Part shown: positions 120 to 60,225 of the stretch, one piece after another
Layout: each line of letters starts with the position of its first letter
Numbering within the stretch: the first letter of the stretch is position 1
Assembly (NCBI GenBank): GCA_013115135.1
Contig: JABANP010000033.1
Coordinates: 1-64,000, forward strand
Length of the DNA stretch: 64,000 nucleotides
Origin: Perkinsus olseni
Taxonomy: Eukaryota > Perkinsozoa > Perkinsida > Perkinsidae
Reading direction: 5' to 3'
Translations under genes and position numbers: made by a program
The notes under the pieces: generated by a model
The model's input: only the letters and a program-made list of their open reading frames with translations
Told to the model about the DNA's origin: nothing
The model's database searches: none

Positions 120-140
120 GAGTAGCAGCTCCTTGTTCTG

Positions 141-1103: not shown

Positions 1104-1145
1104 CCGGCCCTGGTAGAAATTCGGCTTCTCTACCAGAAAGGCCGG
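1094..1145 (+). promoter_or_regulatory. Programmed -1 ribosomal frameshift signal between gag and pol
   Basis: The heptamer GGGAAAC lies at 1094-1100, with gag codons GGA-AAC in frame and the stop TAA next. This is the X XXY YYZ form of -1 sites. A stable stem follows at once: CCGGCC (1104-1109) pairs with GGCCGG (1140-1145), and CTGGTAGA (1110-1117) pairs with TCTACCAG (1129-1136). The pol frame is open through this region, so slipping back one base joins Gag to Pol. The spacer of 3 nt is shorter than the usual 5-9. Confidence 0.8.
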
Positions 1146-33800: not shown

Positions 33801-34543
33801 CGAGCCTGGGGTTGCTCGACCTCTTGATGTTCATCTATACGAACTTTGACCTCTTTGAGTATGGTAGCATAACCCTTACACCATTGATCATAAAGGTGAC
33901 GAATCTTCATACCGATTTCAGTGGAATCCTGATCAGGAGTATACTCTTGGTCAAGTAACAGAATATCGCGCCATGCTAAACAGTCAGCTTTAGCTTTAAC
34001 CACGCCATTCTCGCTTATTGAATTTATCAAAATCGCTTTGATATATTCTGCGATTGGTTTGGGCATAAAGGCAGCATAAATGTATAGTCGAACCATGGCT
34101 GTTTCTCCTACAGCTTGCGATAGTGCAAGGTTAATGCACCTCTCAAGAAAATCGTAGTCATAGAAAGATCTACGATTATTTCTCCTGGGGATTTCATCAA
34201 CCAATGAGCGGTCGAAATAGGAATCTCTATGAGGAGTCACACCCCATGATTCAGAGAAGGCCTTCAAAGAAAGGCCAATCTTCTTCCCTTCACGGGAGAC
34301 AAAATATAAGTTATTCAGGACCACACTGTGGCTGCTGATGCCGCTCACGATCTCAACGACTTTCGCGGGTGAAAGGGAGTTGAGCTCAGCGACAGTAGTA
34401 AACGGGCTCGTGCTAAGCGAGGATGACGATGAAGCCAGTGCTGCATCCCTGACTAGTTGGCTAAACGACCCGTGTTGATGATCATTCCCGGACGGTGCAC
34501 CATGTGAGGTCTGGGTGACACCAACACTAGTCGATCCAGTCAT
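30734..34543 (-). CDS. gag-pol: Gag-protease-reverse transcriptase-RNase H frame of retrotransposon 2
   Basis: The ATG at 34543 lies inside the 5' LTR (MTGSTSVGVTQTSHG), and the primer-binding site is translated as part of the frame. The zinc knuckle CYNCGELGHFAYKC marks the nucleocapsid. A protease-like segment (LQRIALDTMSSTNLC) has D-T-M where retropepsins have D-T/S-G. Reverse transcriptase carries FMDLEKAFLRL and the catalytic FYDDILILG. RNase H has LVVHCDASNSGYGFT and VVFTDNTTAANW. RT before IN fits Ty3/Bel-type order. The frame is continuous over 1,269 residues. Joining gag and RT in one frame differs from retrotransposon 1, which uses a frameshift there. Confidence 0.88.
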   Translation of the reverse strand: MTGSTSVGVTQTSHGAPSGNDHQHGSFSQLVRDAALASSSSSLSTSPFTTVAELNSLSPAKVVEIVSGISSHSVVLNNLYFVSREGKKIGLSLKAFSESWGVTPHRDSYFDRSLVDEIPRRNNRRSFYDYDFLERCINLALSQAVGETAMVRLYIYAAFMPKPIAEYIKAILINSISENGVVKAKADCLAWRDILLLDQEYTPDQDSTEIGMKIRHLYDQWCKGYATILKEVKVRIDEHQEVEQPQARNPVLLLHQWSGLPDKVTQGRLSYTRFSELEKLLFYKVTSHSCKVSIDWNLRRLLYVTVLKRSSLFRDGNSAVISMIERISLMEDGSPDRIDEEVMKSSNKAGYYNVDRFLNLQRRERPLNDDDEMPTKQSRSDTNNNVRDIPSGRSFYSMDKVNKSKQVEQRLPTTDSKNDRKVRAPPKSMQCYNCGELGHFAYKCPYKSTRMKTVSLRSNSELKENRLSDAAPSNPEIGKESSAETPDGDAEPEVALAMSHSLLTADLKVGVPGTSHSRFSLQRIALDTMSSTNLCTSSVVSSLGAPIENNNSTLYGLHSSSKPGSSTSLEVLVPGKKPVVLRFLVIEDDMLQNISGCAILIGNASLPSIGVEVSLPKVEFGGKGGVDAALPDLKEIALSVLCENVDVTKPLPGAPAYQGRLRRCLPDEVHDTAEQKYVYEVVVPRDEGEPTSSLTDPHDYSIDLYHRLATSHKEQFLQEIKNFVSKHYLSTYKLAWQSELRPGCVTFPVVQGLHKSTKCRPCTDARKINLHLPVSSYDGYSVSTILAMVRARFRPGDQLVFMDLEKAFLRLRHADSLVVKVLTLGKVYYSSRVLFGLKYGPCALSGFVLLLLDATFSSLLGYHVRAKSTTEFANLLEGLTVVAFYDDILILGRPELVQKTVQILSYLAPVIGGNFPREKVDHLSPSTENVRHLGVNWRMDHQRGLIISCIPPQKATEEYVSDITRRRAFAIAGSYFDPLQLHPYARLGADWLRHWAGQSPGGMKKSGWDRRWTLSPSTKVEYLKTIEFMNSDNLGNCSHGTIDPKATHLVVHCDASNSGYGFTIHAMGSQPVSWKKPNDGTILQKVSGSFNLKKRSDSWHINRKELYSLATAVREAHNWINKFHPCDIPIKGLVVFTDNTTAANWATEENVNVASRSYDRIAIERLQSQLVDMRDDLKHRFGIPLQVLYIKGTENELADELSRKAQSLPALGGLGVPSPTHTPTLVSDQNHNDKYKSLHDTVLLVTTDQSDIMALPKNVVKPQICPSCS
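34485..34502 (-). promoter_or_regulatory. Primer-binding site of retrotransposon 2
   Basis: Directly next to the 5' LTR the minus strand reads TGGTGCACCGTCCGGGAA. TGG complements the CCA of a tRNA 3' end, as expected of a primer-binding site. The tRNA species was not identified. Confidence 0.75.
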
Positions 34544-34761
34544 TCTTGAAGAAATTGGAGTTAGTAAGGATAGCAAGATAGTCGAGAAAAATAATTACAG
34601 TTGACTATAGCTAAAGCATAGCTCAGAGCCACGCGGGACAGAGCTCCGACACAATACGAGATGAACTCAGTCGATCAGCAGGGCGTGCGCATTGCTCATC
34701 GAGCATCTAGCACGCGTGCGCTGGAAACATCAGCGGCATAAGCAAGGGCTCTTGCTTCACA
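34503..34761 (-). repeat. 5' LTR of retrotransposon 2
   Basis: 259 bp, apparently identical to the other LTR. It contains the gag start codon 40 nt from its inner edge. Confidence 0.93.
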
Positions 34762-43784: not shown

Positions 43785-43793
43785 CTTTAACAG
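43785..43793 (+). repeat. Left copy of 9-bp target-site duplication (CTTTAACAG)
   Basis: CTTTAACAG here and at 58828-58836 flank the long inverted repeats in direct orientation, each exactly 7 nt outside the start of strong inverted-repeat homology. Nine bases is the typical MULE duplication length. Confidence 0.8.
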
Positions 43794-44360
43794 GGCCAGC
43801 GGCCCCAACGTGGGCAGTTTTCGGGTCGAAGGTAGGCAAACTCCTGGCGGGCGCGCTAGGGGTGTTATTACGCGGGCCTTCGGCCCGCTTTTTTCCCAGG
43901 GTGTTTACGTGACCACTCGGGGCCTGGCCGCGCTTGGCCGAGGGCCAACATGACGGTCTACATGCTCCTTGCTGCTACTCACCTCCTATGAGGGACAGGC
44001 GCGAAGTTTCGTGCAAGTTGCACGGAAATGTGCGTGCAGGAAATGCAAGATCTTCAAGCAGTTTAAGATTGAAACCGTTTCGCGTCAGGATAGAATGCTT
44101 GCCCCTTTTGCTTTCCTCCCTCAGAGGATCTCTACTCATGTCCTCTCTAAGCGAACGTTGATGACTTCAAGCTGACGCAGCATTGTAGAGTTACGTTAAA
44201 GAGTTGGTGGTGGCGGCCTCCTTGTCATGCCCAAGCGGTAATGCGCTAATGGTGGCGGCCTCCTTGTCATGCCCAAGCGGTAATGCGCTAATGGTGGCGG
44301 CCTCCTTGTCATGCCGAAACGGTTAATGGTGCGGGCCTCCTTGTCATGCCCAAGCGGTAA
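43794..44360 (+). repeat. Left terminal inverted repeat of the MULE
   Basis: It matches the reverse complement of about 58,262-58,827 at near identity, starting at GGCCCCAACGTGGGCAG (43801). The outermost 7 nt are diverged. The inner end merges into the 42-bp minisatellite, of which the right repeat holds only a few units. Confidence 0.88.
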
Positions 44361-45450
44361 TGCGCTAATGGTGGCGGCCTCCTTGTCATGCCCAAGCGGT
44401 AATGCGCTAATGGTGGCGGCCTCCTCGTCATGCTGAAACGGTTAATGGTGGCGGCCTCCTTGTCATGCCCAAGCGGTAATGCGCTAATGGTGGCGGCCTC
44501 CCTTGTCATGCCCAAGCGGTAATGGTGGCGGCCTCCTTGTCATGCCCAAGCGGTAATGCGCTAATGGTGGCGGCCTCCTTGTCATGCCCAAGCGGTAATG
44601 CGCTAATGGTGGCGGCCTCCCTTGTCATGCCCAAGCGGTAATGGTGGCGGCCTCCTTGTCATGCCCAAGCGGTAATGCGCTAATGGTGGCGGCCTCCTTG
44701 TCATGCCCAAGCGGTAATGCGCTAATGGTGCCGGCCTCCTTGTCATGCCCAAGCGGTAATGCGCTAATGGTGGCGGCCTCCTTGCCATGCCCAAGCGGTA
44801 ATGCGCTAATGGTGGCGGCCTCCTTGTCATGCCCAAGTGGTAATGCGCTAATGGTGGCGGCCGTGGCGGCCTCCTTGTCATGCCCAAGCGGTAATGCGCT
44901 AATGGTGGCGGCCTCCTTGTCATGCCCAAGCGGTAATGGTGGCGGCCTCCTTGTCATGCCCAAGCGGTAATGTGCTAATGGTGGCGGCCTCCTTGTCATG
45001 CCCAAGCGGTAATGCGCTAATGGTGCCGGCCTCCTTGTCATGCCCAAGCGGTAATGCGCTAATGGTGGCGGCCTCCCTTGTCATGCCCAAGCGGTAATGC
45101 GCTAATGGTGGCGGCCTCCTTGTCATGCCCAAGTGGTAATGCGCTAATGGTGGCGGCCGTGGCGGCCTCCTTGTCATGCCCAAGCGGTAATGCGCTAATG
45201 GTGGCGGCCTCCTTGTCATGCCCAAGCGGTAATGGTGGCGGCCTCCTTCTCATGCCCAAGCGGTAATGCGCTAATGGTGGCGGCCTCCTTGTCATGCCCA
45301 AGCGGTAATGCGCTAATGGTGGCGGCCTCCTTGTCATGCCCAAGCGGTAATGCGCTAATGGTGGCGGCCTCCTTGTCATGCCCAAGCGGTAATGCGCTAA
45401 TGGTGGCGGCCTCCTTGTCATGCCGAAACGGGTAATGGTGACGGCCTCGC
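44205..45450 (+). repeat. Minisatellite with 42-bp unit
   Basis: About thirty tandem copies of a 42-bp unit (ATGGTGGCGGCCTCCTTGTC + ATGCCCAAGCGGTAATGCGC + TA), with shorter variants of about 33 bp and some with a GAAACGGTTA ending. The period is a multiple of three, so both strands stay open (MVAASLSCPSGNAL and GMTRRPPPLAHYRL repeats). These frames are a by-product, not proteins I would accept. Confidence 0.95.
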
Positions 45451-47595
45451 GTTTAGCGACGTCGCGCCGTCTTATCACTGAGGAGACTGAATCTTCTGGG
45501 TACACGGCGATTGTACATCAAAAAGACGTGATGATTTTATTGATTTCTACCACTCTTGTTCATCTTGGGTTGACAAGTATGCGTAAGTAGGGCAGCAGCA
45601 GCCAGGAAAAAGTAACCAGTGTCGCATCTCCCCCTATTGGTCACGACAGCCCGAGGATTTCCATCGGATAGTGGAGACTCTGCACGGATATCCATACCGA
45701 GAAATTGCTGATATTGCACGCGTGAACGCATCATAATACGAGTGATTGAGTTATGAACATACGATGATCGCATTTTCGTGATGCAGACCTATCCCATCGA
45801 TATTGACTGAAGATTCTCTCGAAATATTGAATGAAGACTGCTTCCGTAATACGGAATCCGTACTAGCAATGTAATAAGCTTCCAAACGAATTGTAGTTAT
45901 TCTGGTTGTAAGGTTGACTGAGGCGTCAACAGGTTGTATGACGAAGGAAACTGCGTGGCTCTGCCCGTGAACTCGACCGTACTACATGTGCATTACGCAA
46001 CATGCAAGAATATCGGCTACCTTCGAAGGTGCTTCACAGCTGGGACGGTGGTCGTAGGATTTCTAACTGACGAGATTACCCGATTTCGAAGATGGTTGGA
46101 GATATGTATGTCGCCTCCTAGTGCGTCACAAGGCAGACATTGAATCACAGCTATACTGGACAATATGACGCGTATAGTAAGTACACCCTGCGTATAGTAA
46201 GTACACCCTGCGTTCTGAGTTTCTGTTTTTTGATGTCGTCAGAAGTGCAAGGAGATTAAGTTAAAGACGATTGATCAGAAGAATCTTGGACGAGAAAAGT
46301 GGGAGGCACTTTGCTACACTTGTAGCGCGCTTCTAGTAGCACTAGTAGAGTACTACTCTGATTGTGATGTGATGTCAACCAGTCTCCGAGGATCATACAA
46401 GTGTATGCGGCTTGTAAAGTGGAACGGAGCAACGCGTTGAACGCGATCAGTTAAACTGATTCAGTTTGGGAGGAATGGCTAACTTCCAAGTGTGTGCGAT
46501 CATCCATGAAATAACGCAGAGCTCGTGGGATAGGAGGGATACTCTTCTTCGGAGGAGTCTGTTTACTTCATGCATTACGATGTTTGTGCAGATTCGAAGA
46601 ACATATGACATTCTTGGTCGTAGCCATCTAGCCAGCTTGATAGTGGCCGCAAAGGATCGTGCTGAAGGCGGAACACATTTTAAATGTCATTCCGGGATGA
46701 TCCATACCAAGTAAGCTAGCCAAGTGTAACTAGTACAATCGACGACTGTCAGTCGTAGTTCCCAGCCTGATCAAGATAGGATCGAGTCCCATCCCGACTA
46801 AATGCTTTGTAGTCAAGCCGCCTCCTTCGTCTCGGCCTTCGGATCGGAATAGATGGCTGATCGGCCTGATAAAATGATTCTCATAGTTGCTATCGACTCC
46901 TCGAGGGCACGCAGCGTGCTGCACGCTACTAGAAATAGGATCCATTATAGTTCAGGGGAAATCCAGAGACCGTGTACCGTTCCTGCGGCAATGCATACAT
47001 TGATCCGGGCCGAGCTGATGATCGCATTCCTTCTTCCTGCGGACGGACTAGGGATCTCCGGTCGGGATGCAGTGCAGCCTGAAAAACGAAGTATCATTCT
47101 ACGAGGATGGTCCTAGTTGGTCGTTTCTCCGGGGATGACAATCTTCGGCGCCACAACCCCCGTACTTGCTGATGCGTCCTCGCCACTGGTTATCTCCGAT
47201 GGCAGTTGAGCCTGAATCATACTCAATAATACCAATTTCAGTGACTCTGAGGGTCACAATCGGATAGCATTCTTCTTCGGAAAACGACGATATACAGTAC
47301 TTACAGAGGATCTTGCGGCCGTGGCCGAGATCGAGCGGGTGAGATCAGTCTGGGTATTAAGGCGCAGCGCAGCATCGTGTACCTGATCCGGGGGGGTTCT
47401 ATGTCCGGCGGGTATCGTTCGGGCAGAAATCTCTGGGCATCTCTTGGGAATTCTCCCGTGGGAATTGGTTTCGATAAGCCCGATGATCCAATGATTCGGT
47501 TTTAGCTTTTGTGACTTACATGCAATTCTTCCTCGCTCGTCTCGCATCTCTCCTCTTCACCGCAGTCGGATAATATCTCGCCACAAGAAAGTCTC
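45451..47595. other. Internal MULE sequence without a recognised gene
   Basis: A perfect 20-bp tandem duplication (GCGTATAGTAAGTACACCCT) lies at about 46,170-46,212. A minus-strand open piece at 45,537-45,700 (MDIRAESPLSDGNPRAVVTN) and another at 47,254-47,547 are possible exons but match no family. Captured host fragments, common in MULEs, cannot be excluded. Confidence 0.45.
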
Positions 47596-48648
47596 TCAGT
47601 AGGTTCTGGGGTTGGTCCTTCGTTCTCTGAGAAAGCATACAAAGCTTCCACGTGAGGGCACCAATGGTGCCAATGGTGTCACACCATTTGCAAATCTGAA
47701 TGACTGGGGTGACCCTCTGCTGGAGGATACTCTACCTGTCCCGATAGTCTCTCGGGGTCGGCTGGTTTGATGGCGTGAGCCTGCTGCGGGTCGGCCTGAA
47801 TCTCGCTGCTTCTCCCTAGATCGCTTGGATGGTCCTCGAGCCCCTCGTTTGAACCCGTAGCGGATATTTTCAGGCAGGGCTTGGTCTGTGATGCGCCCAT
47901 CCTTCCGTTGTCGGCGGCGAGGCAAGGAAAAGAATGCCCTCAAGTACTTCCACTCTTCGGAAACCTCCTCCTGCATAAGGTATGCAGTGCATATCACATG
48001 GCTGCAGATATGCTTTCGACTCCACTGGATGCAAGAGCAAGTGGGCCCATCCGGGGGAGGTGCATGGGGATCAGCGGTGCGCTTGTAGGATACAATGAAG
48101 TAGGTCTTACGCAGTCTACGCACCTCCGCGAGGGACGCATAGCTGTAGTTCACCATCTTCTTAGCCTCGAAATCTTCTTCGCCGAAGACGCGATCGGATA
48201 GCTGACCTCCGCTGGAGCCTCCTTGGCTTTCATCCCGCGCATAGAGCCATTGGTCTCCTTGATAGTGTTCGGAACTGGTTGGATGCCAAGTGGCTGGGAT
48301 CAGGCAGTAGATTTCCCGCTGGAAGAGTCGGGCGGCAAGTTTTCTCTGTTTCTTAGTAACTTCCCCGAGAAGCTGTCGTCCACCATACTGAGACAGCCGG
48401 ATCCACTTTCGCGGGGAAGCGAAGAAGCTCCCCAGCTCGGACAGGGTACGACGGTATCTACTCTTCAAGAGGACCTTCTTCAATTCGCCATTGAACTTTT
48501 CCACTCCATTATTCGTACGAGGGCCAACGGCGTAGGAACCCCAATATGACCGCCAGTCTTCGTCGTTTAGATAGTGGGAAAATTTGTCGAAGAAGCACTT
48601 TATGGCGACGTTCTCTGCGTGAGTATCTGAGCGGGAAGTTTGACTCAA
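47596..48648 (-). CDS. MULE transposase C-terminal part with SWIM zinc finger
   Basis: It continues the transposase after a frame break at about 48,650. It contains the block with the probable third catalytic acid (TNNGVEKFNGELKK), as in MULE/MuDR transposases, and a SWIM zinc finger (CSCIQWSRKHICSH, C-x-C-xn-C-x-H), which binds DNA or protein. A basic tail rich in Arg, Lys and Ser follows (GARGPSKRSREKQRDSGRP). No intron joining it to the preceding frame was convincing, so the break is either a small indel or a splice I could not resolve. Confidence 0.75.
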   Translation of the reverse strand: MSQTSRSDTHAENVAIKCFFDKFSHYLNDEDWRSYWGSYAVGPRTNNGVEKFNGELKKVLLKSRYRRTLSELGSFFASPRKWIRLSQYGGRQLLGEVTKKQRKLAARLFQREIYCLIPATWHPTSSEHYQGDQWLYARDESQGGSSGGQLSDRVFGEEDFEAKKMVNYSYASLAEVRRLRKTYFIVSYKRTADPHAPPPDGPTCSCIQWSRKHICSHVICTAYLMQEEVSEEWKYLRAFFSLPRRRQRKDGRITDQALPENIRYGFKRGARGPSKRSREKQRDSGRPAAGSRHQTSRPRETIGTGRVSSSRGSPQSFRFANGVTPLAPLVPSRGSFVCFLRERRTNPRTY

Positions 48649-48663
48649 CCAACGTCATGCTAG

Positions 48664-51600
48664 TCAAACTAGGGTCGAATTTGCACCCGAGCGTCTCCTC
48701 AGGAGTTTGAGTTTCAAATTATTGCATGGATGGATGAATGAAGGGGTACCACGTTGAAATATTGAAGAATTCTCAAGGGCTGCAGCAATACGCCTGGATA
48801 TCGAAGGCAAGAACGAAGGATCGAATAGGCGTCGGATATTGATATCCGATATTCTCGTAGCCATGTATTCACCCCGATGCATCTCACCTTGCAGCCACTC
48901 TCCTAGACAAAGATCTCGCAACACTCGCCACTCATCTCTGGTTGTAGCGTCAGCCAGCAGCCGAAGATCGTTCAAGATGGCCCTCCACACACTTTCTGGT
49001 AATTTGGCAGCAGCTTTTTTCTCCTTCGCCTTCTGTATTACATGGAATAGGCAACTGACGATTTGTGTATGAGGCCCAAAGACTTCGATCAATGCCTTGT
49101 GGTTGGCGGGGGAGCCGTCGGTCACCACTGCTTTAGGTACATGGTTGCACACCCCGGCATCATCTGCGGCATTCATCAGCTGTCTCAGGACGTGACCGAG
49201 AGCCTCGGAATTCTCGCTGTTGATGATGGCTATCCCAACTGGCTTGGCAGTCTGGTGAGGTGGGAGAGAGGCGAGTACGGCCACCACAATGTCGGCGTGA
49301 ACACAATTGAATGTCGAATCCACCCCCAGAGTGTGTATACCCTCTAGGTTCTTCAACATTCTGGGACTTGTAGCCAGAGCAGCAAACACATCAACATCAT
49401 CCCGGCCTCTCTCACCTGGTGAGTGGCGGCACAGGATGTCACCAACAAAAATACAGTCGTCCGCCTGACGCGCTTTAGCCATCGTCTCGGCCTCCGTCGA
49501 GCCCTTTTCCACCGCCACCAAGGAGCGGATTATGTCGGAAATTTCTTCTTTAACAGCCGCAGAATCACGCCGCAGTGGGGTTAATTGTTCCACAAATGCA
49601 TCGACAGATAGACCAGCCCTTCCATTGGGCTTAATTGATCGCGCGGCGCCCCGTATAGCTTCGTAGTCTTTGAGGCCCTTGTTGAGGATGAAAGTCATCG
49701 TGCTCGAGCTATACTTACCGCTAGCATACCATTCGTTGCTACCCTCGATCAGGTCGTCGAGAGTGCGACAGGGATCCTCGTCGATGAGAGCGGCCCAATG
49801 ATCGCAAACATCTGGTGGCACTGTCGCGGAGCGGCAGATATATGACTTGTGAGGGTGTGAGTGAGCTCGCCACTGTTGCGAAGTGCCTGCCGATGATTTC
49901 ATCGGGAAGAAGTAGCATGTCTCTCTCTCCATTCGTACAAGGCATTGTGATAGGGGACAGATAAAATCCGGCCATAGTCTCCAATCCGGCCGACTACCTC
50001 GCGTTGGCTCCTTCCCTCGGCTCCTCTTCGAAGCAGTTCTGCGGCACTCCAGAATGCACGATCGGCGGCCGTGTCGCAGCTTCTCGAGTGTCAAGTCAGC
50101 CAGACGATAATGATCATGTTCGATGAGGTAGGCACCAACCACATTGTATAGATGACCACGCCTCACTAGGAACGGTTCATTTGCGAACAGTTCATTTTGA
50201 CTACCGCCATGAGGTATCCTGTGGAGATCGGGTTCGGTGAGCTCGACTTCAGAAGGCTCGCTGGTGGCCTCGACGGTCCTCGCATCAGATATAATATGAT
50301 CCTCATATTCCTCGTCTACTGTCCCTACTCCATCGCTGTCAAGATTCACAGAATCGAGGTCTCCGAGTGAGTGGATGGCCGGGCTCTGACACTCCGTGGC
50401 GTCCGGTGGTTGAGGAACCCTCGAATCTGGGTCTGGGTCATTGCATAGATTGGAGCGATCAGCAGGGTTACCCTCGTCGCTCTGTGGACCAACTTCAGCT
50501 CGCCCCTCGCTAAGGCCTGTGGACTGTCGGGTGCCTCTCAGGATATTGCATACCTCCTCTTCAGATAGATCTCTGCCCGAGTCGGTCAAGTTCAGCCTCA
50601 CGTGGAGATCTTTGTAGAACCGGAGTCGCATGTCGAAGGGAAGCGTGTCGACCTTGCTGGCAAGATGAGGAATACTCAAGCAGTACACAATAGGGTCTGT
50701 GAACCTCTCTAAACCTTGGCCAGCTCGTGCGAAGTGATTCGCGAGGTGGTAATCAGCACGTAAGTTATCAATGCGATCACTGAGACCTTCCACAGCCAGG
50801 TTCAGGTCCCTCAGATGCGCAGAGTGCGAGTCGACGTCTCTATCAGCCCCCAGATTTGGTATCGGACCAGCTCGCTGTTCTCGCTGAGAGCTCTGAGATG
50901 TGGCTGCTCCGCCAAATTCCCCACCGATCAACCAGCTCGACTCCTTGCATGCCTCATCGAATCTTGATGCCTCTGGATCCATGAAGAAGACCGGTGAGAC
51001 TTGCTCCCGTCTCGAGGAGTTCCTCAGCGGATACACCTTCACCTGGCTCGAGCACCCCACTCTGCTCAGTATCGTATACATGCCTCCCACAATCCATTCC
51101 CTCTTCCAGTAGGCCCGTATGGTATCATCCCGAGAAGCAGGGACTCTCGGGAAGGGTAACTTAACCCATATTCCGGCCAAGGTGAGGCCTACCGTTTTAT
51201 GCGCTGTCAACGCATACGCGAGGGTTATGGGGAACTGTTTGCGGGAGAACACTATGTCTCCTTCAGGGTTCCTCACAACGAAGGTTTCTCGCGTAACATC
51301 GACGGGAAGAAGCGCTCCGTCGAATAATATCGATACTCGAGGCTCATGGCTACCCTCAGTCCCTAGAATCTGCCTCACTGTCCCCATCATGCCATTGGTG
51401 TACCGGTGAGTTGGATGATTTATCGTAGTCATAACCCTTGCTCCAATTTTCAGGTTCAATGTAGATCGATACCCCATACTATCGACGTCCTTCTTCTGAA
51501 AGCATGGTGGAGAGGGAACCATCTCGGTATCAATCGCTGTGAACACGCAGGGTGGCCCAGAGGGGAAGAATGCTATTCTTTCTTACCGGGAATTCCGGAA

Positions 51601-51962
51601 ATTCCCGGGAAGAAAGAATGCTCAATATTCCCTGGAAGAATGGTTAAGATTCTTCCCGGGTATTTGGGTGCTTCATTCCAATGGTTTGACTTGAGGGAGC
51701 ATCGAGTATGGGTAGATATGCGCGCCGAAGGCGCGCGAAAAAAAATTTGGGGGCTTGTTTCAATGGGGAAGAATGCATTCTTTCTTCCCGGCTATATTCC
51801 CGGGAATTCCCGGAAATTCCCGGGAATGGGAAGAATGATCTATTCTTTCCACTTTTGGGCCACCCTGTGAACACGTGCGCAGTGCCCGGTAGGGTGTCCA
51901 AATGCTTGCGGTTGTGCTCTTCGGCCTCTTGGTTCTTCAGACAGATAACGGTATGAGCAAAC
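48664..51962 (-). CDS. Pif1 helicase C-terminal half fused in frame to MULE transposase
   Basis: Starting at the acceptor near 51962, the frame reads FAHTVICLKNQEAEEHNRK, is cut by the MITE (51548-51867), and resumes at 51547. From there 960 residues are open without a stop. They give the Pif1 2B/late helicase motifs (LKIGARVMTTINHP, TNGMMGTVRQIL, LAYALTAHKTVGLTL), a long acidic linker, and a WRKY/FLYWCH-like Cys-His segment (FICPLSQCLVRMERETC, HSHPHKSYIC). The transposase core follows: HTLGVDSTFN (first Asp), PKAVVTDGSPANH (second Asp) and IVSCLFHVIQKAKEK, a MULE hallmark. Pif1 enzymes unwind DNA 5' to 3'; MULE transposases cut at terminal repeats. Joining both in one polypeptide suggests the helicase serves transposition. 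The helicase acts first in the reading order. Confidence 0.8.
51548..51867. mobile_element. hAT-like MITE, 320 bp, inserted in the helicase coding region
   Basis: The terminal inverted repeats are perfect over 12 bp (CAGGGTGGCCCA ... TGGGCCACCCTG). Each side carries the 8-bp duplication TGAACACG (51540-51547 and 51868-51875). Eight-base duplications and CAGGG ends are typical of hAT elements. Removing the element and one duplication restores a continuous helicase reading (AHVFTAID). The interior is rich in palindromic GGAATTCC/CCCGGG runs and codes for nothing recognised. Confidence 0.88.
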
Positions 51963-52153
51963 CTGAGTCATCACGGTGTGAACAGCGATGTGAACGTTGC
52001 GTCAGTTAGGCACGGTAGGTTACGAGGCACGGCTCTTCTGTGCTAGGGGGCCGGCTAGGTCACTCAGTTCAGACTATAGTGTTATACAGAATGTATACAA
52101 TGAAATTCGATCAAGCGTTGTGGACTAGAGGGTGCTCCACTGTGTGGGTGGTT

Positions 52154-52566
52154 CTGGGAGCGTTTCTATCGCAGAGGAATGAGAGGTCGACTATGAAACT
52201 CGGCCCCCTCGGACTTGATACTACGGAAGATTGAGCTCTTGGGTTTCGTGGATTCTCGAAGTATGTGTGAGGAGTAATAACGCGAAACGATCTTCAAGGA
52301 GTTCCTCCACTCAACCGCATTGACTCGACTCTTTCCCGTGGAGAGGTGAATGACCGCCATGCCTCTGCGGAGGGAGTTGGAGGGTAGATAATAGAAAAAT
52401 GCGGTTGAGAGGAGGAACTCCGTGAAGATCGTTTCGCGTTATTACTCCTCACACGTACTTCGAGAATCCACGAAACCCAAGAGCTCGATCTTCCGTAGTA
52501 TCAAGTCCGACGGGGCCGAGTTTCATAGCCGACCTCTCATTCCTCTGCGATAGATACCCTCCCAGA
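52154..52566. mobile_element. Foldback MITE within the helicase intron
   Basis: Arms of about 170 bp (about 52,154-52,330 and 52,395-52,566) are near-perfect inverted copies, with ends CTGGGAG and CTCCCAG and a short central loop. It lies in the 815-nt intron 51963-52777. A smaller inverted pair (GTGAAACGTTTCGG / CCAAAACGTTTCAC) sits at 52,678-52,730. Confidence 0.85.
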
Positions 52567-52777
52567 GTCACATCCACAGGAGTTGAACCCCTTCCATTGA
52601 TGTCAATCGTTGTAGGCTTGCGACGCTACCAGATGGCTTTTCACACTATATTGTTGTATATGCTTCTCTATCATACCGTGAAACGTTTCGGACTAACACC
52701 ATTAGTTATATTAGGCCAAAACGTTTCACAGGATCGTACTCGGACGTGACTGCTGTTTCAGGCGAACCCTGGCTCAC

Positions 52778-53631
52778 CTCGGCTCCATACGCCCTCCATC
52801 TCTGTCCCTGATCTTGGCGAGAACTCTCAGGGATGTGTCGGTGAACATAGGGACTCCATCGTCTTCCTCGCTAACATTTCTGATATCCTTCAGAAGGCCG
52901 AGATAGTCGCTATCGGCCCCTCTATTAAAGCGAGTAAGGTACATCACAGTCGGCCCCATTTCGGCCCAGCAGCTGCTCCGCCAGAAGGGGAACGTAGGGT
53001 AGGCTTCAGGTCCGTACAAGGCAGATCCCTCGAATAGTGCAACCCTACCGATTTGGCAGGGGTCGCCGCAGAACACCACCGCCAGGCCACCAAAGGGTAA
53101 CTGGCTTGAGGGTCGCCCATGACGAATTTGTTTGAATGTCGCTGACATTGCATCCACTATTGTGTGATGCAATGCAATGACTTCATCCACATATATGACT
53201 GCGCCTTTTCTCAGTTGTTCCTCCTCCTCTGATCCTTTGATGCCACGGACCATTCGCCGAGTAAGTTCCTCGGTCGACCGCATATAAGAGTTATCGCCCA
53301 CGACTGAAGTATCGTCGAAGCCGAGGCTGAAGTATGACATGACCGTCACTCCTCCGACCTGTTTCGCTGACATGCCATTCCACGCTAGGATCACTTGATG
53401 AGGACCTCGTGGATCACTCCCGATTTCTTGAATGATAGATTTGAGAAGGTGAGACTTGCCAGTCCCGGCATAGCCGGTGATATAGAAATATCTTTGGTCA
53501 GGCCTCGTCTCTTCGTCCAAGGTGGCTTCCACACTCTCTACGATTTTGTCGAAAGCTCTTCGTTGGTCTGGATCTAATCCGTAATGCTCTGAAGCGCTCG
53601 CAGCGTATCTGACATCAAAGAGATCATGCAT
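52778..53631 (-). CDS. Pif1-type helicase N-terminal half (exon 1 of the MULE gene)
   Basis: The ATG at 53631 (MHDLFDVRYAASASEHYG) is the first methionine outside the minisatellite. Superfamily 1 helicase motifs follow: LDPDQRRAFDKIVESV, Walker A GYAGTGKSHLL, LAWNGMSAKQVGGVTVMSYF, Walker B AVIYVDEVIALHH and motif III VFCGDPCQIG, then a linker reading VMYLTRFNRGADSDYLGLL. It ends at a GTGAGC donor (52777); the acceptor at 51963 keeps frame, giving MEPR then FAHTVICLK. The frame stays open upstream into the 32-bp repeats, where it would read as repeated HQISSPG-type units, probably not translated. There is no Rep/HUH nuclease nearby, so this is not a Helitron helicase in its usual setting. Confidence 0.8.
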
Positions 53632-53664
53632 TTTAGGTTGAAATCCGAATCGGAATGCCTCCTG

Positions 53665-56600
53665 ACGGTGATATGTCCTGGCTACGATCTCTCCTGGCGA
53701 TGATATGTGATGGCCATGATCTCTCCTGGCGATGATATTTGATGGCAATGATCTGTCCTGGCTATGATATGTCCTGGCTATGATCCCTCCTGTCGATGAT
53801 ATTTGGTGGCACTGATCTCTCCTGGCCATGATATGTGATGGCAATGATCTCTCCTGGGGATGATATACGCTGGCTATGATTTGTCCTGGCGATGATATTT
53901 GATGGCAATGATCTGTCCTGGCGATGATATTTGGTGGCACTGATCTCTCCTGGCGATGCTATGTGATGGCAATGATCTCTCCTGGGGATGATATACGCTG
54001 GCTATGATTTCTCCTGGCGATGATATCTGATGGCAATGATCTGTCCTGGCGATGATATTTGGTGGCACTGATCTCTCCTGGCGATGCTATGTGATGGCAA
54101 TGATCTCTCCTGGGGATGATATACGCTGGCTATGATTTCTCCTGGCGATGATATTTGATGGCAATGATCTGTCCTGGCGATGATATTTGGTGGCACTGAT
54201 CTCTTCTGTCGATGCTATGTGATGGCAATGATCTCTCCTGGCGATGATATTTGCCGGCAATGATGCCTCCTGACGATGATATCTGATGGCAATGATCTGT
54301 CCTGGCGATGATATTTGGTGGCACTGATCTCTCCTGGCGATGCTATGTGATGGCAATGATCTCTCCTGGGGATGATATACGCTGGCTATGATTTCTCCTG
54401 GCGATGATGTTGATGGCAATGATCTGTCCTGGCGATGATATTTGGTGGCACTGATCTCTTCTGTCGATGCTATGTGATGGCAATGATCTCTCCTGGCGAT
54501 GATATTTGCCGGCAATGATGCCTCCTGACGATGATATTTACCGGCAATGATGCCTTTTTCCTGGCGATGATATTTGCCGGCAATGATGCCTCCTGACGGT
54601 GATATGTGATTGCCCTGATCTCCTGCCGGTGATATGTGGTGGCTATGATCTCTCCTGGCGATGATATTTGATGCGAATGATCTCTCCTGGCTATGATATG
54701 TGATGGCTATGTTCTCTCCTGGGGATGATATGTGGTGGCTATGATCTCTCCTGGCGATGATATGTGATGGCTATGATCTCTCCTGGCGATGATATTTGCC
54801 GGCAATGATGCCTCCTGACGGTGATATGTGATTGCCCTGATCTCCTGCCGGTGATATGTGGTGGCTATGATCTCTCCTGGCGATGATATTTGATGCGAAT
54901 GATCTCTCCTGGCTATGATATGTGATGGCTATGATCTCTCCTGGGGATGATATGTGATGGCTATGATCTCTCCTGGCGATGATATGTGATGGCTATGATC
55001 TCTCCTGGCGATGATATTTGCCGGCAATGATGCCTCCTGACGATGATATGTGATTGCCCTGATCTCTCCTGGCGGTGATATGTGGTGGCTATGATCTCTC
55101 CTGGCGATGATATTTGATGCGAATGATCTCTCCTGGCTATGATATGTGATGGCTATGATCTCTCCTGGGGATGATATGTGATTGCCCTGATCTCTCCTGG
55201 CGGTGATATGTGCTGGCTATGATCTCTCCTGGCGATGATATTTGATGCGAATGATCTCTCCTGGCTATGATATGTGATGGCTATGATCTCCTGGGGATGA
55301 TATGTGATGGCTATGATCTCTCCTGGCGATGATATGTGATGGCTATGATCTCTCCTGGCGATGATATTTGCCGGCAATGATGCCTCCTGACGATGATATT
55401 TGCCGGCAATGATGCCTCCTGACGATGATATTTGGTGGCACTGATCTCTCCTGGCGATGCTATGTGATGGCAATGATCTCTCCTGGGGATGATATACGGT
55501 GGCTATGATTTGTCCTGGCTATGATCTCTCCTGGCGATGATATTTGCCGGGAATGATTCCTCCTGACGATGATATGTGATTGCCCTGATCTCTCCTGGCG
55601 GTGATTTGTGGTGGCTATGATCTCTCCTGGCGATGATATTTGATGCGAATGATCTCTCCTGGCTATGATATGTGATGGCTATGATCTCTCCTGGGGATGA
55701 TATGTGATGGCTATGATCTCTCCTGGCGATGATATGTGATGGCTATGATCTCTCCTGGCGATGATATTTGCCGGCAATGATGCCTCCTGACGATGATATT
55801 TGCCGGCAATGATGCCTCCTGACGATGATATTTACCGGCAATGATGCCTCCTGACGATGATATTTGGTGGCACTGATCTCTCCTGGCGATGATATGTGAT
55901 GGCAATGATCTCTCCTGGGGATGATATTTGGTGGCACTGATCTCTCCTGGCCATGATATGTGATGGCAATCATCTCTCCTGGGGATGATATACGCTGGCT
56001 ATGATTTGTCCTGGCTATGATCTCTCCTGGCGATGATATTTGCCGGCAATGATGCCTCCTGACGGTGATATGTGATTGCCCTGATCTCCTGACGATGATA
56101 TTTGATGCGAATGATCTCTCCTGGCTATGATATGTGATGGCTATGTTCTCTCCTGGGGATGATATGTGGTGGCTATGATCTCTCCTGGCGATGATATGTG
56201 ATGGCTATGATCTCTCCTGGCGATGATATTTGCCGGCAATGATGCCTCCTGACGGTGATATGTGATTGCCCTGATCTCCTGCCGGTGATATGTGGTGGCT
56301 ATGATCTCTCCTGGCGATGATATTTGATGCGAATGATCTCTCCTGGCTATGATATGTGATGGCTATGTTCTCTCCTGGGGATGATATGTGGTGGCTATGA
56401 TCTCTCCTGGCGATGATATGTGATGGCTATGATCTCTCCTGGCGATGATATTTGCCGGCAATGATGCCTCCTGACGATGATATTTACCGGCAATGATGCC
56501 TCCTGACGATGATATTTGGTGGCACTGATCTCTCCTGGCGATGCTATGTGATGGCAATGATCTCTCCTGGGGATGATATACGCTGGCTATGATTTGTCCT

Positions 56601-57245
56601 GGCTATGATCTCTCCTGGCGATGATATTTGCCGGCAATGATGCCTCCTGACGATGATATGTGATTGCCCTGATCTCTCCTGGCGGTGATATGTGGTGGCT
56701 ATGATCTCTCCTGGCGATGATATTTGATGCGAATGATCTCTCCTGGCTATGATATGTGATGGCTATGATCTCTCCTGGCGATGATATGTGATGGCTATGA
56801 TCTCTCCTGGCGATGATATGTGATGGCTATGATCTCTCCTGGCGATGATATTTGCCGGCGATGATGCCTCCTGACGATGATATGTGATTGCCCTGATCTC
56901 TCCTGGCGGTGATATGTGGTGGCTATGATCTCTCCTGGCGATGATATTTGATGCGAATGATCTCTCCTGGCTATGATATGTGATGGCTATGATCTCTCCT
57001 GGGGATGATATGTGATGGCTATGATCTCTCCTGGCGATGATATGTGATGGCTATGATCTCTCCTGGCGATGATATTTGCCGGCAATGATGCCTCCTGACG
57101 ATGATATTTGCCGGCAATGATGCCTCCTGACGATGATATTTACCGGCAATGATGCCTCCTGACGATGATATTTGGTGGCACTGATCTCTCCTGGAGATGA
57201 TATGTGACGGCAAATTGCCATTGGCAATGATCTCTCCTGGGGATG
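53665..57245. repeat. Minisatellite with 32-bp unit, about 3.6 kb
   Basis: More than one hundred units of a 32-bp motif (TGATATGTGATGGCTATGAT + CTCTCCTGGCGA) with variants such as ATTTGCCGGCAATGATGCC. Higher-order blocks of several units recur, for example the series with GATTGCCCTGATCTCC. Three units make 96 bp, so long open frames appear on the minus strand; I regard them as artefacts. The array directly abuts the helicase start and so may act as its upstream region. Confidence 0.95.
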
Positions 57246-58261
57246 AGCACTCTCCGAGCACAACGTTGTAGACGCAACCGAGTACTATAGGCCCTCTAGT
57301 GTTCCTTCGCGAATCGTGATCCACGGCATGGTAGTATAAGCGTGGTTTCTACTGCTCAAGAACTACTGAGTTTTTCATATAGAGCGGATCATAGTAAAAA
57401 AGACGGTCATACATTACCAATCTAACGTTATAGATTGACAACTCAAGAACAAACCATTTGGCAGCTTAACCGAAGAATGAAACTGACTCTCCATTATACC
57501 ATACATGAGTTTGGTGCAGAAGATTCACTCAGTGGCCCTGCCCCTTATCCCGATATTACTTATTTTTTTCCCCGATATCACGCGTGTTCGTGCGAAATCC
57601 ACCGCTCTGATTCGACTGCGGATTCGACATGATACTAAGGAAGCTTGATTCAAGACGCCTAAGCAGGATTTGATTGTTATTGGGTTGTTGACAATAACGC
57701 CGTATCGTCATCCTCAACTCGTAGGAATTACGAACGAGCGCGACACGAGATTAGTTGCTAACCTTCACATCATGAGCCGTTGACAGCGAATGAGACACTG
57801 TCATTAAATGCGATTGAATCTCACGTACGTTCGGTTTCGGTTTGACAGTCACCCGCAAACCCCTCGTGCTTTTACGATATGCCCAGGGATAACACTGATT
57901 AAGCCTAAATAGGCACTCTACAGTGTTTTCATCCTTGCACATAGTACTTGTCAACGCAACTTGAACAAGGACAGTGGCAACTAATTCGAACACCATGCTT
58001 TATCGAGGTAACCCCCGCATATCCAAACAATCAAGTCCCCCCGGCGAGAAAGTAGCGTGAAACCCACGAACTCTCTTTACCCTTTACAAACCCGCTGAGT
58101 CCACCATTGCCGACGGAACCTCCTTTCGTAGAGGGACGCTACTGGCACCGCTTCCACAGATTCAAAATCCAAGGAGGGCGAGAAGGTCGCTACAATTTAA
58201 CTCCACATTCCTTCAGCAGTTCAAAGAAGACCGCCACCATCAACACTTAACCGCTCGGCAT
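57246..58261. other. Internal MULE sequence, no gene recognised
   Basis: Unique sequence between the 32-bp array and the right inverted repeat. A minus-strand open frame at 57,751-57,996 (VLVQVALTSTMCKDENTVEC) has no recognisable family. Confidence 0.5.
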
Positions 58262-58827
58262 TACCGCTTGGGCATGACAAGGAGGCCGCCACCATTAACC
58301 GTTTCGGCATGACAAGGAGGCCGCCACCATTAGCGCATTACCGCTTGGGCATGACAAGGAGGCCGCCACCATTAGCGCATTACCGCTTGGGCATGACAAG
58401 GAGGCCGCCACCACCAACTCTTTAACGTAACTCTACAATGCTGCGTCAGGTTGAAGTCATCAACGTTCGCTTAGAGAGGACATGAGTAGAGATTCTCTGA
58501 GGGAGGAAAGCAAAAGGGGCAAGCATTCTATCCTGACGCGAAACGGTTTCAATCTTAAACTACTTGAAGATCTTGCATTTCCTGCACGCACATTTCCGTG
58601 CAACTTGCACGAAACTTCGCGCCTGTCCCTCATAGGAGGTGAGTAGCAGCAAGGAGCATGTAGACCGTCATGTTGGCCCTCGGCCAAGCGCGGCCAGGCC
58701 CCGAGTGGTCACGTAAACACCCTGGGAAAAAAGCGGGCCGAAGGCCCGCGTAATAACACCCCTAGCGCGCCCGCCAGGAGTTTGCCTACCTTCGACCCGA
58801 AAACTGCCCACGTTGGGGCCGGTAAGC
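58262..58827 (-). repeat. Right terminal inverted repeat of the MULE
   Basis: Reverse complement of 43794-44360, including four or five units of the 42-bp minisatellite. Strong homology ends at GTTGGGGCC (58820), then 7 diverged bases, then the target duplication. Confidence 0.88.
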
Positions 58828-58836
58828 CTTTAACAG
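58828..58836 (+). repeat. Right copy of 9-bp target-site duplication (CTTTAACAG)
   Basis: Identical to 43785-43793. With the upstream TGTTGT of the left flank, the empty site would read as a pyrimidine-rich tract ending in AG, like a splice acceptor, 64 nt before the amine oxidase ATG. Confidence 0.8.
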
Positions 58837-58899
58837 TAGTGACCGCACCAGCATCCCCGTCTCAGGGTAGTCAATCAGTAGTCCGTTGCTCTCTTGTCT

Positions 58900-60225
58900 A
58901 TGTGTTCCTCCAACCACCACCCTGCTACAACAGCATTCGACGTCATTATCATTGGTGGGGGTGCTGCGGGCCTTGCCGCCGCCAGGGCCTTGCAGGGCCG
59001 CTACAACGTGGCTGTCATCGAGGCACGACCGAGGCTGGGGGGAAGGATAAGCCCAACCAAGTGGCATCGGGGGGTTGCTATTGACATGGGCGCTCAGTAC
59101 ATTCACGGCGTGTGCCCTGCGAATCCTATGGTCGACCTGGTTAATCGCGGAAAGCTTAACCTCGAAGAGTATCCTGGATCTGACGAGGAGTACATTACGG
59201 CGCTGCGGGCATACAGCTCCCAGGGGAGGTTGTATTCGGCTGAGGAACTGGACAGCGCTTACAAAAGAATGCAAAATCTGATGGAAAAAGTGGAAAAAGT
59301 TTGCCGGGAGTTGGATGATGACGTTAGTCTTGAGGAAGGCGTTCGACTGGCTGGGGTCGACCTCTCCGCCGAAGACGAGCTTGTGAGGTATCTTTGGTGG
59401 TATCTTGTTCACACGTGGATGGGAGTCAGCTCCGACGCTCAACTTCGAGCCAACGAGTTTGACGGTTCCGACGAGACTGGCAGGTGTGATGGCCCGGACG
59501 GTAAAGTAGTGGAAGGCATGTACGCTCTGGTCGAGGAGCTCGAGAAGGAGTGCCCCAACGCCCACTTCATGCTCTCCACCCCAGTCGTCTCCGTAGAGCA
59601 AGATGGCGATGGCGATGCATCTGTGAAGGTCACAACTCGTGATGGTGCGGAGTACTTTGCGAGAGCGTGTATCTGTACCGTTCCTTTGGGAGTTCTGCAA
59701 CAAGGTCGCCTTCGCTTCGTTCCGGAGTTGCCGTCAGCTCAGCGGGAGTCTATCGGGAGGTTGGGTACCGGTACCAGCGAGAAGGTGTTCCTTGGGTGGG
59801 ATAAGGTGGACCCGATACCTGATGATAAGGAGGGGATAGCCGTTATCGGGCCCGATGGGCAGAACTGGCTCTTCGAGGTCCTCTCCGGAAACGCCGTCAC
59901 AGCGCAAGTAGTGGACATCAGTGGGGCTGAGGCCATCGATGGCGCGGTGCAGGCCCTCAGGATAGCCATTCCAGATCTTCCTGCGCCCGACCAAACTGGC
60001 ATCACTTTCTTCTGTTCGGGGTTGTACTCGATGGGAGCCTACTCGCATTACAGGCCAGGGGCTACTGAGAAGGACGTTGAAGCGGCAGCCCAGCGACACG
60101 GCTTGGTGTGGTTCGCTGGTGAGCACTGCGACCCGGAGTATCAAGGAGCAGTCCACGCGGCCCTCCTGACGGGTGCTAAGGCTGCTGAGGATGTCGAGGA
60201 GTATCTAGCCGGTCGACCTTGTTAA
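58900..60225 (+). CDS. FAD-dependent amine oxidase (polyamine oxidase/LSD1-like)
   Basis: Intronless, 441 residues from ATG 58900 to TAA. It oxidises amines such as polyamines, or possibly methyl-lysine, using FAD and releasing hydrogen peroxide. The dinucleotide-binding GxGxxG is near the N-terminus (VIIIGGGAAGLAAARAL), then RPRLGGRI and DMGAQYIHG, which line the flavin in this family. The typical VTTRDG/ACICTVPLGVL segment follows mid-protein. The C-terminal flavin block is WFAGEHCDPEYQGAVHAAL. No SWIRM or Tower insert is visible, so a polyamine-oxidase role is likelier than histone demethylation. No signal peptide is evident. Its upstream region was split from copy D by the MULE. Confidence 0.9.
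   Translation: MCSSNHHPATTAFDVIIIGGGAAGLAAARALQGRYNVAVIEARPRLGGRISPTKWHRGVAIDMGAQYIHGVCPANPMVDLVNRGKLNLEEYPGSDEEYITALRAYSSQGRLYSAEELDSAYKRMQNLMEKVEKVCRELDDDVSLEEGVRLAGVDLSAEDELVRYLWWYLVHTWMGVSSDAQLRANEFDGSDETGRCDGPDGKVVEGMYALVEELEKECPNAHFMLSTPVVSVEQDGDGDASVKVTTRDGAEYFARACICTVPLGVLQQGRLRFVPELPSAQRESIGRLGTGTSEKVFLGWDKVDPIPDDKEGIAVIGPDGQNWLFEVLSGNAVTAQVVDISGAEAIDGAVQALRIAIPDLPAPDQTGITFFCSGLYSMGAYSHYRPGATEKDVEAAAQRHGLVWFAGEHCDPEYQGAVHAALLTGAKAAEDVEEYLAGRPC

What the first reader, a model, noticed from the sequence alone, without database searches (positions are those of the whole stretch)
47596..53631. A Pif1 helicase and a MULE transposase in one reading frame
Seen: the late helicase motifs (LKIGARVM, LAYALTAHKTVGLTL) and the MULE core (LGVDSTFN, VVTDGSPAN, CLFHV) lie in one uninterrupted 960-residue frame, preceded by an exon with Walker A and B and followed by a SWIM finger. 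Known: Pif1-like helicases are standard in Helitrons, while MULEs usually carry a transposase with or without accessory genes. A helicase-DDE transposase fusion inside a MULE is not something I know as described. Inference: the helicase may unwind ends or aid replication-coupled transposition, or help maintain the repeat-rich 15-kb element.
Basis: partly seen in the sequence, partly recalled or inferred. Interest (0 to 1): 0.9.

Follow-up and report, generated by a model that had tools for sequence, protein, structure and literature searches.

The report
Jumping gene with built-in DNA helicase
In the shellfish parasite Perkinsus, a lineage of Mutator-type jumping genes carries a Pif1-type DNA-unwinding motor in the same gene as its transposase, and both parts have been kept together through long divergence, though the copy in this window has since been damaged by another mobile element.

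Summary
On the minus strand one 972-aa frame (48664-51582) joins the second half of a Pif1 helicase to a MULE transposase. The Walker A/B half lies in an upstream exon; the third catalytic residue and a SWIM pattern lie downstream. All sit in a TIR element (43794-58827) with a 9-bp target-site duplication. The host is Perkinsus olseni.

It is not a lone nested helicase. Divergent copies (34-47% aa identity) in the genome repeat the order, and a GenBank protein of P. chesapeaki holds both domains. The helicases form one clade (99/99), and the transposase cores one clade (100/100) apart from 8 other P. olseni MULEs sampled. Helicase C half and transposase core are equally conserved (41% and 40%; linker 23%). 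Two copies 99% identical show pN/pS 0.15.

Some family copies lack all or half of it. DDE elements with a helicase are already known (KolobokH, AcademH); a Pif1-MULE combination I did not find in the held library. One polypeptide, and the helicase's role, are inferred.

The parts
43785..43793 (.). Target-site duplication, left copy (CTTTAACAG)
   Evidence: exact 9-bp direct repeat flanking both ends at equal distance; 2 of 20000 random 9-mer pairs and 69 of 5000 random 35-bp pairs (shared 8-mer or more) matched
43794..44363 (+). Left terminal inverted repeat (arms matched from 43800; outermost 6-7 bases differ from the right end)
44208..45437 (.). 42-bp tandem array at the 3' side of the gene
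47737..48627 (-). Exon with third catalytic E (TNNGVEKFN) and SWIM pattern; limits from alignment of GenBank protein FOZ63_015789
48889..51539 (-). Coding stretch: rest of Pif1 C half, linker, Cys/His-rich region, MULE core with first two catalytic D; lies in the 972-aa frame 48664-51582
51548..51867 (-). Nested MITE (ends CAGGGTGGCC) inside helicase coding sequence; duplication CGTGTTCA at 51868-51875 and 51540-51547
51868..51962 (-). Short coding stretch with start of Pif1 C half (TVICLKNQEAEEHN)
   Evidence: homologous stretches in C32 and C621
51963..52777 (-). Intron 1 with GT-AG ends; holds a single-copy foldback at 52140-52579
   Evidence: splice position agrees with P0006
52778..53631 (-). 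Exon 1: Pif1 N half (Walker A GYAGTGKS, Walker B VDE, motif III GDPCQ)
53659..57211 (.). 32-bp tandem array ending 27 nt upstream of the first in-frame ATG of exon 1
58258..58827 (-). Right terminal inverted repeat; terminus GCTTACCGGCCCC shared with copies on C135 and C819
58828..58836 (.). Target-site duplication, right copy (CTTTAACAG)

Best explanation
The window holds one member of a Perkinsus lineage of Mutator-like DNA transposons (MULEs) whose single gene encodes, in order, a Pif1-type helicase, a variable linker, a Cys/His-rich region, the MULE DDE transposase, a SWIM finger and, in some copies, a PHD-like tail. A common ancestor of the sampled copies acquired the helicase once, and the two parts then diverged together under purifying selection; the lineage is in P. 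olseni and P. chesapeaki. Most likely mechanism (inferred): the DDE core and its zinc fingers bind and cut the element ends, and the attached helicase acts on the branched or single-stranded DNA left by cutting and strand transfer, opening it for host repair synthesis or replication restart. Such help would suit 8.5-15 kb elements full of tandem and inverted repeats. Shown by sequence: architecture, TIRs, duplication, recurrence, clades, constraint. Inferred: one polypeptide, and the helicase's role. The window copy itself is probably defective in the helicase because a MITE has inserted into it.
For: Pfam PIF1 and MULE above cut-off in adjacent frames. TIR element with 9-bp duplication; C32 and C335 also lie between inverted repeats. 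Same order in C32, C621, C448 and C799. P. chesapeaki protein FOL47_000897 has both domains in one model; so has FOZ60_014976 of P. olseni, which is C699. Helicase clade 99/99, C35 included; transposase clade 100/100, C467 included. Walker A GxxGxGK, Walker B DE and motif III Q in 7 of 7 rows aligned, C855 left out; H128, S173 and R174 of the C half in 4 of 4. C335 against C799: 16 synonymous and 8 replacement changes, pN/pS 0.15, one-sided p 8e-6; helicase C half alone 4 and 1, p 0.015. Mean pairwise identity: helicase C half 41.5%, linker 23.2%, Cys/His region 39.0%, MULE core 40.5%. A model of the C621 frame matches solved Pif1 (Foldseek E 1e-9) and the transposase ISCth4 (E 9e-4), at mean pLDDT 55.7.
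Against: No transcript or protein was seen. The GenBank model of the window gene starts inside the helicase C half. The MITE cuts the window helicase. C467 has no helicase hit on its contig, C335 lacks the N half and C699 the C half. Decay in core motifs: C32 reads GNPCQ where others read GDPCQ, one C855 exon reads GTGNT in Walker A, and the Gln of the usual Pif1 HKSQG motif (recalled) is replaced in 3 of 4 copies. No exact duplication around the C32 or C335 inverted repeats. The transposase tree does not resolve the branching inside the clade, so one acquisition rests mainly on the helicase tree; transfer between species is not excluded.
Confidence: 0.72

Rival explanations
1. Helicase and transposase are one genetic unit but two proteins: alternative splicing or a start inside the helicase C half yields a transposase without ATPase, and the helicase is a separate accessory protein.
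For: FOZ63_015789 begins at a Met inside the helicase C half; in C799 and C335 the parts lie in successive frames.
Against: 4 of 6 copies keep helicase C half and MULE core in one frame; the P. chesapeaki and C699 gene models join both domains. A break within the helicase would leave neither of its two halves able to work (established knowledge of SF1 helicases).
Confidence: 0.15
2. The helicase is a passenger: a host or other-element gene piece caught between MULE ends (Pack-MULE style) or a nested element, with no role in movement.
For: The window helicase is cut by a MITE; C467 lacks a helicase, C335 and C699 have half.
Against: Same order in divergent copies; helicase C half as conserved as the transposase core; ATPase residues kept in 7 of 7 rows aligned; pN/pS 0.08 in the helicase C half of C335/C799, on 5 changes only.
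Confidence: 0.08
3. A Helitron inserted into a MULE, its Pif1 domain now read through into the transposase.
For: Two Helitron polyproteins (PF14214 plus PIF1) are among the 3 non-Perkinsus hits of the first protein search; the C half also matches Helraiser.
Against: The helicase clade is separate from the Helitron-like rows C40/C856 and from P0003/P0004, with deeper order unresolved; no Helitron_like_N match in the four window frames scanned.
Confidence: 0.05

Closest known systems
MULE / MuDR superfamily (including Arabidopsis VANDAL)
   Same: TIRs, 9-bp duplication, DDE core with CxxH, Cys/His-rich region upstream, SWIM pattern; tandem arrays near the gene recall VANDAL21 (PMC5735166, passages)
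   Different: Pif1 helicase N-terminal to the transposase; PHD-like tail in some copies
KolobokH
   Same: A DDE transposon lineage that carries a helicase with the transposase (PMC9587614, passages)
   Different: [quoted passage not shown] here Pif1, upstream, 9-bp duplication
AcademH
   Same: DDE transposon with a helicase and 9-10 bp duplications (PMC10045372, passages)
   Different: Academ transposase; the fungal screen ties these lineages to DEAD/Helicase_C domains (PMC10799480, passages); here MULE and Pif1
Helitron (RepHel)
   Same: Pif1-type helicase in a transposon protein
   Different: No Rep domain match; TIRs, target-site duplication and a DDE core instead

Membership tests
MULE / MuDR | MULE transposase domain | tested here: met
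   PF10551 40.3 bits, cut-off 27.6
MULE / MuDR | DDE triad with C/DxxH between second D and E | tested here: met
   D, D and CLFH in the 972-aa frame, E in TNNGVEKFN of the next exon. Across copies the E pattern was found in 5 of 7; C467 has a variant; none found in the C699 stretch given
MULE / MuDR | TIRs with 8-11 bp target-site duplication (length range recalled) | tested here: met
   Window copy: 9 bp. C32 and C335: inverted repeats, no exact duplication found
MULE / MuDR | SWIM finger (common, not universal; recalled) | tested here: inconclusive
   CxC..CxH pattern in 7 of 7 copies; Pfam SWIM only for C621, 18.0 bits under cut-off 19.6
MULE / MuDR | Autonomous transposition | not testable with these tools
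   TIR family at 3 sites with 99% identity suggests past movement only
Pif1 helicase | Pif1 domain with ATPase motifs | tested here: met
   PF05970 75.8 bits, cut-off 25.9; motifs in 7 of 7 rows aligned, with changes in C32 and C855; PDB Pif1 chains at 3e-13 (N half) and 7.5e-8 (C half) for C621
Pif1 helicase | ATP-driven 5'-3' unwinding | not testable with these tools
   No assay
Helitron | Rep (HUH) domain and no TIRs or duplication | tested here: not met
   No Helitron_like_N in the frames scanned; TIRs and duplication present
KolobokH | Kolobok DDE, TTAA duplication, RecQ helicase downstream | tested here: not met
   MULE domain, CTTTAACAG duplication, Pif1 upstream; family features
AcademH | Academ DDE transposase with DEAD/Helicase_C helicase | tested here: not met
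   Pfam gives MULE and PIF1, no DEAD or Helicase_C match. The 9-bp duplication alone would fit

The most novel reading that the evidence does not exclude
A eukaryotic DDE transposase with its own Pif1 motor in one polypeptide drives replication-coupled (copy-out or break-induced) transposition of 8.5-15 kb repeat-rich elements, so that the element brings part of the replication-restart machinery that its bacterial IS256 cousins take from the host.
Probability: 0.15. Interest if true: 0.85.

Novelty: new variant of a known kind. Interest (0 to 1): 0.62.

Why it matters
Helicases are already known to have joined DDE transposons in Kolobok and Academ. A further joining, in another superfamily and with another helicase class (Pif1, otherwise the motor of Helitrons), would be convergence and suggests that DNA unwinding is a recurring need of large DDE elements. 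The clade holds members with whole, half and no helicase, so the question whether a MULE gains from its own helicase can be put to comparison.

Tried and rejected
Lone nested helicase insertion: rejected, the order recurs in divergent copies. Helitron origin: not supported but not excluded; the place of the helicase clade among other Pif1 rows is unresolved. Virus origin: one scan of viral contigs matched 65 stretches by pattern, none a relative by tblastn; in phages 79 records matched, and the 5 listed covered only the helicase part (residues 11-169) at about 30% identity. The structure model is weak (mean pLDDT 55.7) and serves only as support. The helicase-C codon comparisons of C257 were out of frame and are not used. 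First MULE trees failed by script error and were rerun. The three protein searches gave 4, 3 and 2 proteins, all from Perkinsus except two Helitron polyproteins and one other Pif1-bearing protein (P0003-P0005); each scored only the roughly 8000 candidates sharing most words, so relatives in other alveolates may be missed. Family helicase hits on C152, C632, C492, C672 and C695 and a second C855 copy were not examined. Literature: 10 of 10 searches used; of papers I saw listings, and passages of five, none as a whole.
Full report
Check of the observation. Pfam finds MULE there (40.3 bits, cut-off 27.6) and PIF1 in the upstream frame 52774-53958 (75.8 bits, cut-off 25.9). The downstream frame 47596-48654 holds the third catalytic E and the SWIM pattern, though Pfam gave it no match.

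The element. Inverted arms of about 570 bp (98-99% alike) lie at 43785-44363 and 58258-58836. The same 9-mer, CTTTAACAG, stands at 43785-43793 and 58828-58836, at equal distance from the two ends. As a control, 2 of 20000 random 9-mer pairs from the window were equal, and 69 of 5000 random pairs of 35-bp stretches shared an 8-mer or more. The element is then 43794-58827, 15.0 kb; its outermost 6-7 bases differ between the two ends. The terminus of the right end recurs on contigs C135 and C819 with other flanks (99% TIR identity), so the TIR family has moved. On C135 the TIR is split by about 12 kb; arrays follow, and no gene hit is listed there. On C819 only about 290 bp of TIR was found in the 6.3 kb read. 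Window 45449-49000 has no other copy in the DNA search beyond 94 bp at 77% on C532.

The host. The window lies in a 61.5-Mb, 968-contig genome. A GenBank protein 98% identical to the frame, FOZ63_015789 of Perkinsus olseni, is on a contig of 241306 bases, the length of C257. That model starts at a Met within the helicase C half and splices to the SWIM exon.

The helicase of the window copy. Intron 1 (51963-52777) has GT-AG ends, and its place and phase agree with the P. chesapeaki protein P0006. A 320-bp element with inverted ends CAGGGTGGCC and an 8-bp duplication CGTGTTCA sits in the coding sequence that follows, at 51548-51867. Its inside gave 83 rows genome-wide, 36 places (itself included) covering at least 280 of 306 bases at 81% or more, with 40 of 54 candidates scored. 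Unless it is spliced out, which was not tested, the helicase of this copy is broken.

The family. The 972-aa frame gave 21 matches in the genome. C32, C621 and C448 have helicase C half, linker, Cys/His-rich region and MULE core in one frame of 913, 972 and 892 aa (34-38% identity to the window frame), with Walker A/B exons upstream. C799 has the same order in successive frames. C335 is 99.06% identical to C799 over 5115 bp but lacks the Walker exon. C699 has the helicase N half followed directly by the transposase part. C467 has transposase, SWIM and PHD-like parts in one 909-aa frame and no helicase hit on its contig. C35 has a helicase followed by the start of the transposase part. C593 is a decayed relative of C621 with stops. 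C855 has two helicase-N exons close to that of C32. In P. chesapeaki FOL47_000897 has PIF1 (25.1 bits here, just under the 25.9 cut-off; listed in the database's own Pfam) and MULE (38.2 bits) in one predicted protein. Of 36 MULE loci in the genome (38 rows merged), 6 have a family helicase part within 4 kb; C621 is a seventh, its MULE match being too weak for that list.

Other parts. C, C, H, H and C of the region before the MULE core are invariant in 8 of 8 rows; the likeness to WRKY/FLYWCH-type fingers of other MULEs is recalled, and Pfam named none. The SWIM pattern is in 7 of 7 copies and the third-E pattern in 5 of 7; in C32 and C448 the two lie in different frames. A PHD-like tail was found in C448, C799, C467 and C699.

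Trees. Among 19 Pif1 rows the 7 family helicases plus C35 form one clade (99/99), apart from Helitron-like C40/C856, two Helitron proteins, a bacterial-type Pif1 and other Perkinsus rows; deeper order is unresolved. Inside it C699 and C35 (95/94) stand against the other six (97/88). Among 16 MULE cores the 7 helicase-linked rows plus C467 form one clade (100/100), apart from 8 other P. olseni lineages; long branches occur outside, and inside only C699 with C467 (99/99) is firm. One joining with later losses is the simplest reading.

Selection. Mean pairwise identity among four copies is 41.5% in the helicase C half, 23.2% in the linker, 39.0% in the Cys/His region and 40.5% in the MULE core. 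Synonymous differences between divergent copies are saturated in the in-frame comparisons. Between C335 and C799 there are 16 synonymous and 8 replacement changes over 982 and 3227 sites, pN/pS 0.15, one-sided p 8e-6; in the helicase C half alone 4 and 1, p 0.015. The frames used overlap by some tens of bases at their ends. Against this, C32 and one C855 exon carry changes in core ATPase motifs, and C32 against C855 shows 6 synonymous and 11 replacement changes in the helicase N exon (pS 0.029, pN 0.017), which is weaker constraint.

Structure. One AlphaFold2 model of the C621 frame, from 7 sequences, has mean pLDDT 55.7. From that one frame Foldseek matches solved Pif1 structures (best E 1e-9), a Helitron transposase (2e-6) and the transposase ISCth4 (9e-4). 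By sequence the C621 helicase halves match PIF1 chains at 3e-13 and 7.5e-8.

Arrays. In 7 of 7 copies whose upstream DNA was fetched (C257, C621, C799, C699, C448, C32, C855) a tandem array of at least 200 bp ends 27-460 nt before the first likely start of the helicase, with units of 30 to 374 bp (starts read). The C448 array is only two units, and the C32 one is part of its inverted repeat. This recalls VANDAL21, where VANC binds motifs in such arrays (PMC5735166, passages). Arrays also occur outside these elements in the stretches fetched, and no genome-wide control was run.

How it may work. Shown by sequence: architecture, movement of the TIR family, clades, constraint. Inferred: that one polypeptide is made, and that the helicase opens branched or single-stranded DNA after cutting or strand transfer so that host repair or replication can finish the move of a large repeat-rich element. 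Pif1 proteins are known for break-induced replication and G4 unwinding (recalled). ISCth4, of the IS256 family (recalled), moves by copy-out/paste-in (PMC7780238, start of abstract in the listing); this makes a replicative route thinkable here but does not show it.

Known kinds. KolobokH carries a RecQ helicase downstream of its transposase (PMC9587614, passages), and AcademH a helicase with 9-10 bp duplications (PMC10045372, passages; the original paper was not held). Searches combining Mutator or MULE with Pif1, helicase or Perkinsus listed no described Pif1-MULE in the held open-licence library; most subscription papers are not in it. I therefore call it a new variant of a known kind.

Noticed in passing
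window 53659-57211; L017 1-3280; L011 1-2935; L019 4367-8177: Long tandem arrays directly upstream of the helicase start in 7 of 7 family copies whose upstream DNA was fetched, with different units.
   Followed up: partly
G000 C161:7223, C375:3512, C478:26030, C523:125020 (L039, L038, L040, L036): Another clade of divergent Pif1-like helicases (100/100), three of them in open frames of 846 to 2429 aa; possibly another mobile element.
   Followed up: no
L017 7316-8539; L004 4302-5486; L020 4262-6988; L019 919-1956: PHD-like cysteine-rich tail after the SWIM pattern in C799, C448, C467 and C699; not found by the pattern in the C257, C621 and C32 stretches given.
   Followed up: partly
window 51548-51867: MITE family with CAGGGTGGCC ends and an 8-bp duplication at this site, at least 36 nearly full places in the genome; hAT-like by recall.
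   Followed up: partly
window 52140-52579: Foldback with 182-nt arms in intron 1, no other copy found.
   Followed up: partly
window 126-4837 (+) and 28846-34594 (-): Two sets of long retroelement-like frames, judged by recall from motifs; no family search run.
   Followed up: no
G000 C135:211331-226521 (L024, L026, L031): Another copy of this element's end, its TIR split by about 12 kb of other DNA; arrays present, no gene hit.
   Followed up: partly
window 58882-60225 (+): The element ends 55 bp before an open frame that looks like an amine oxidase (by recall), so its right end may lie in that gene's promoter.
   Followed up: no
G000 C40:593-1237, C856:66282-66929 (L033, L034): Helitron-like Pif1 helicases in the same genome (by recall of motifs; 100/99 pair).
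   Followed up: partly
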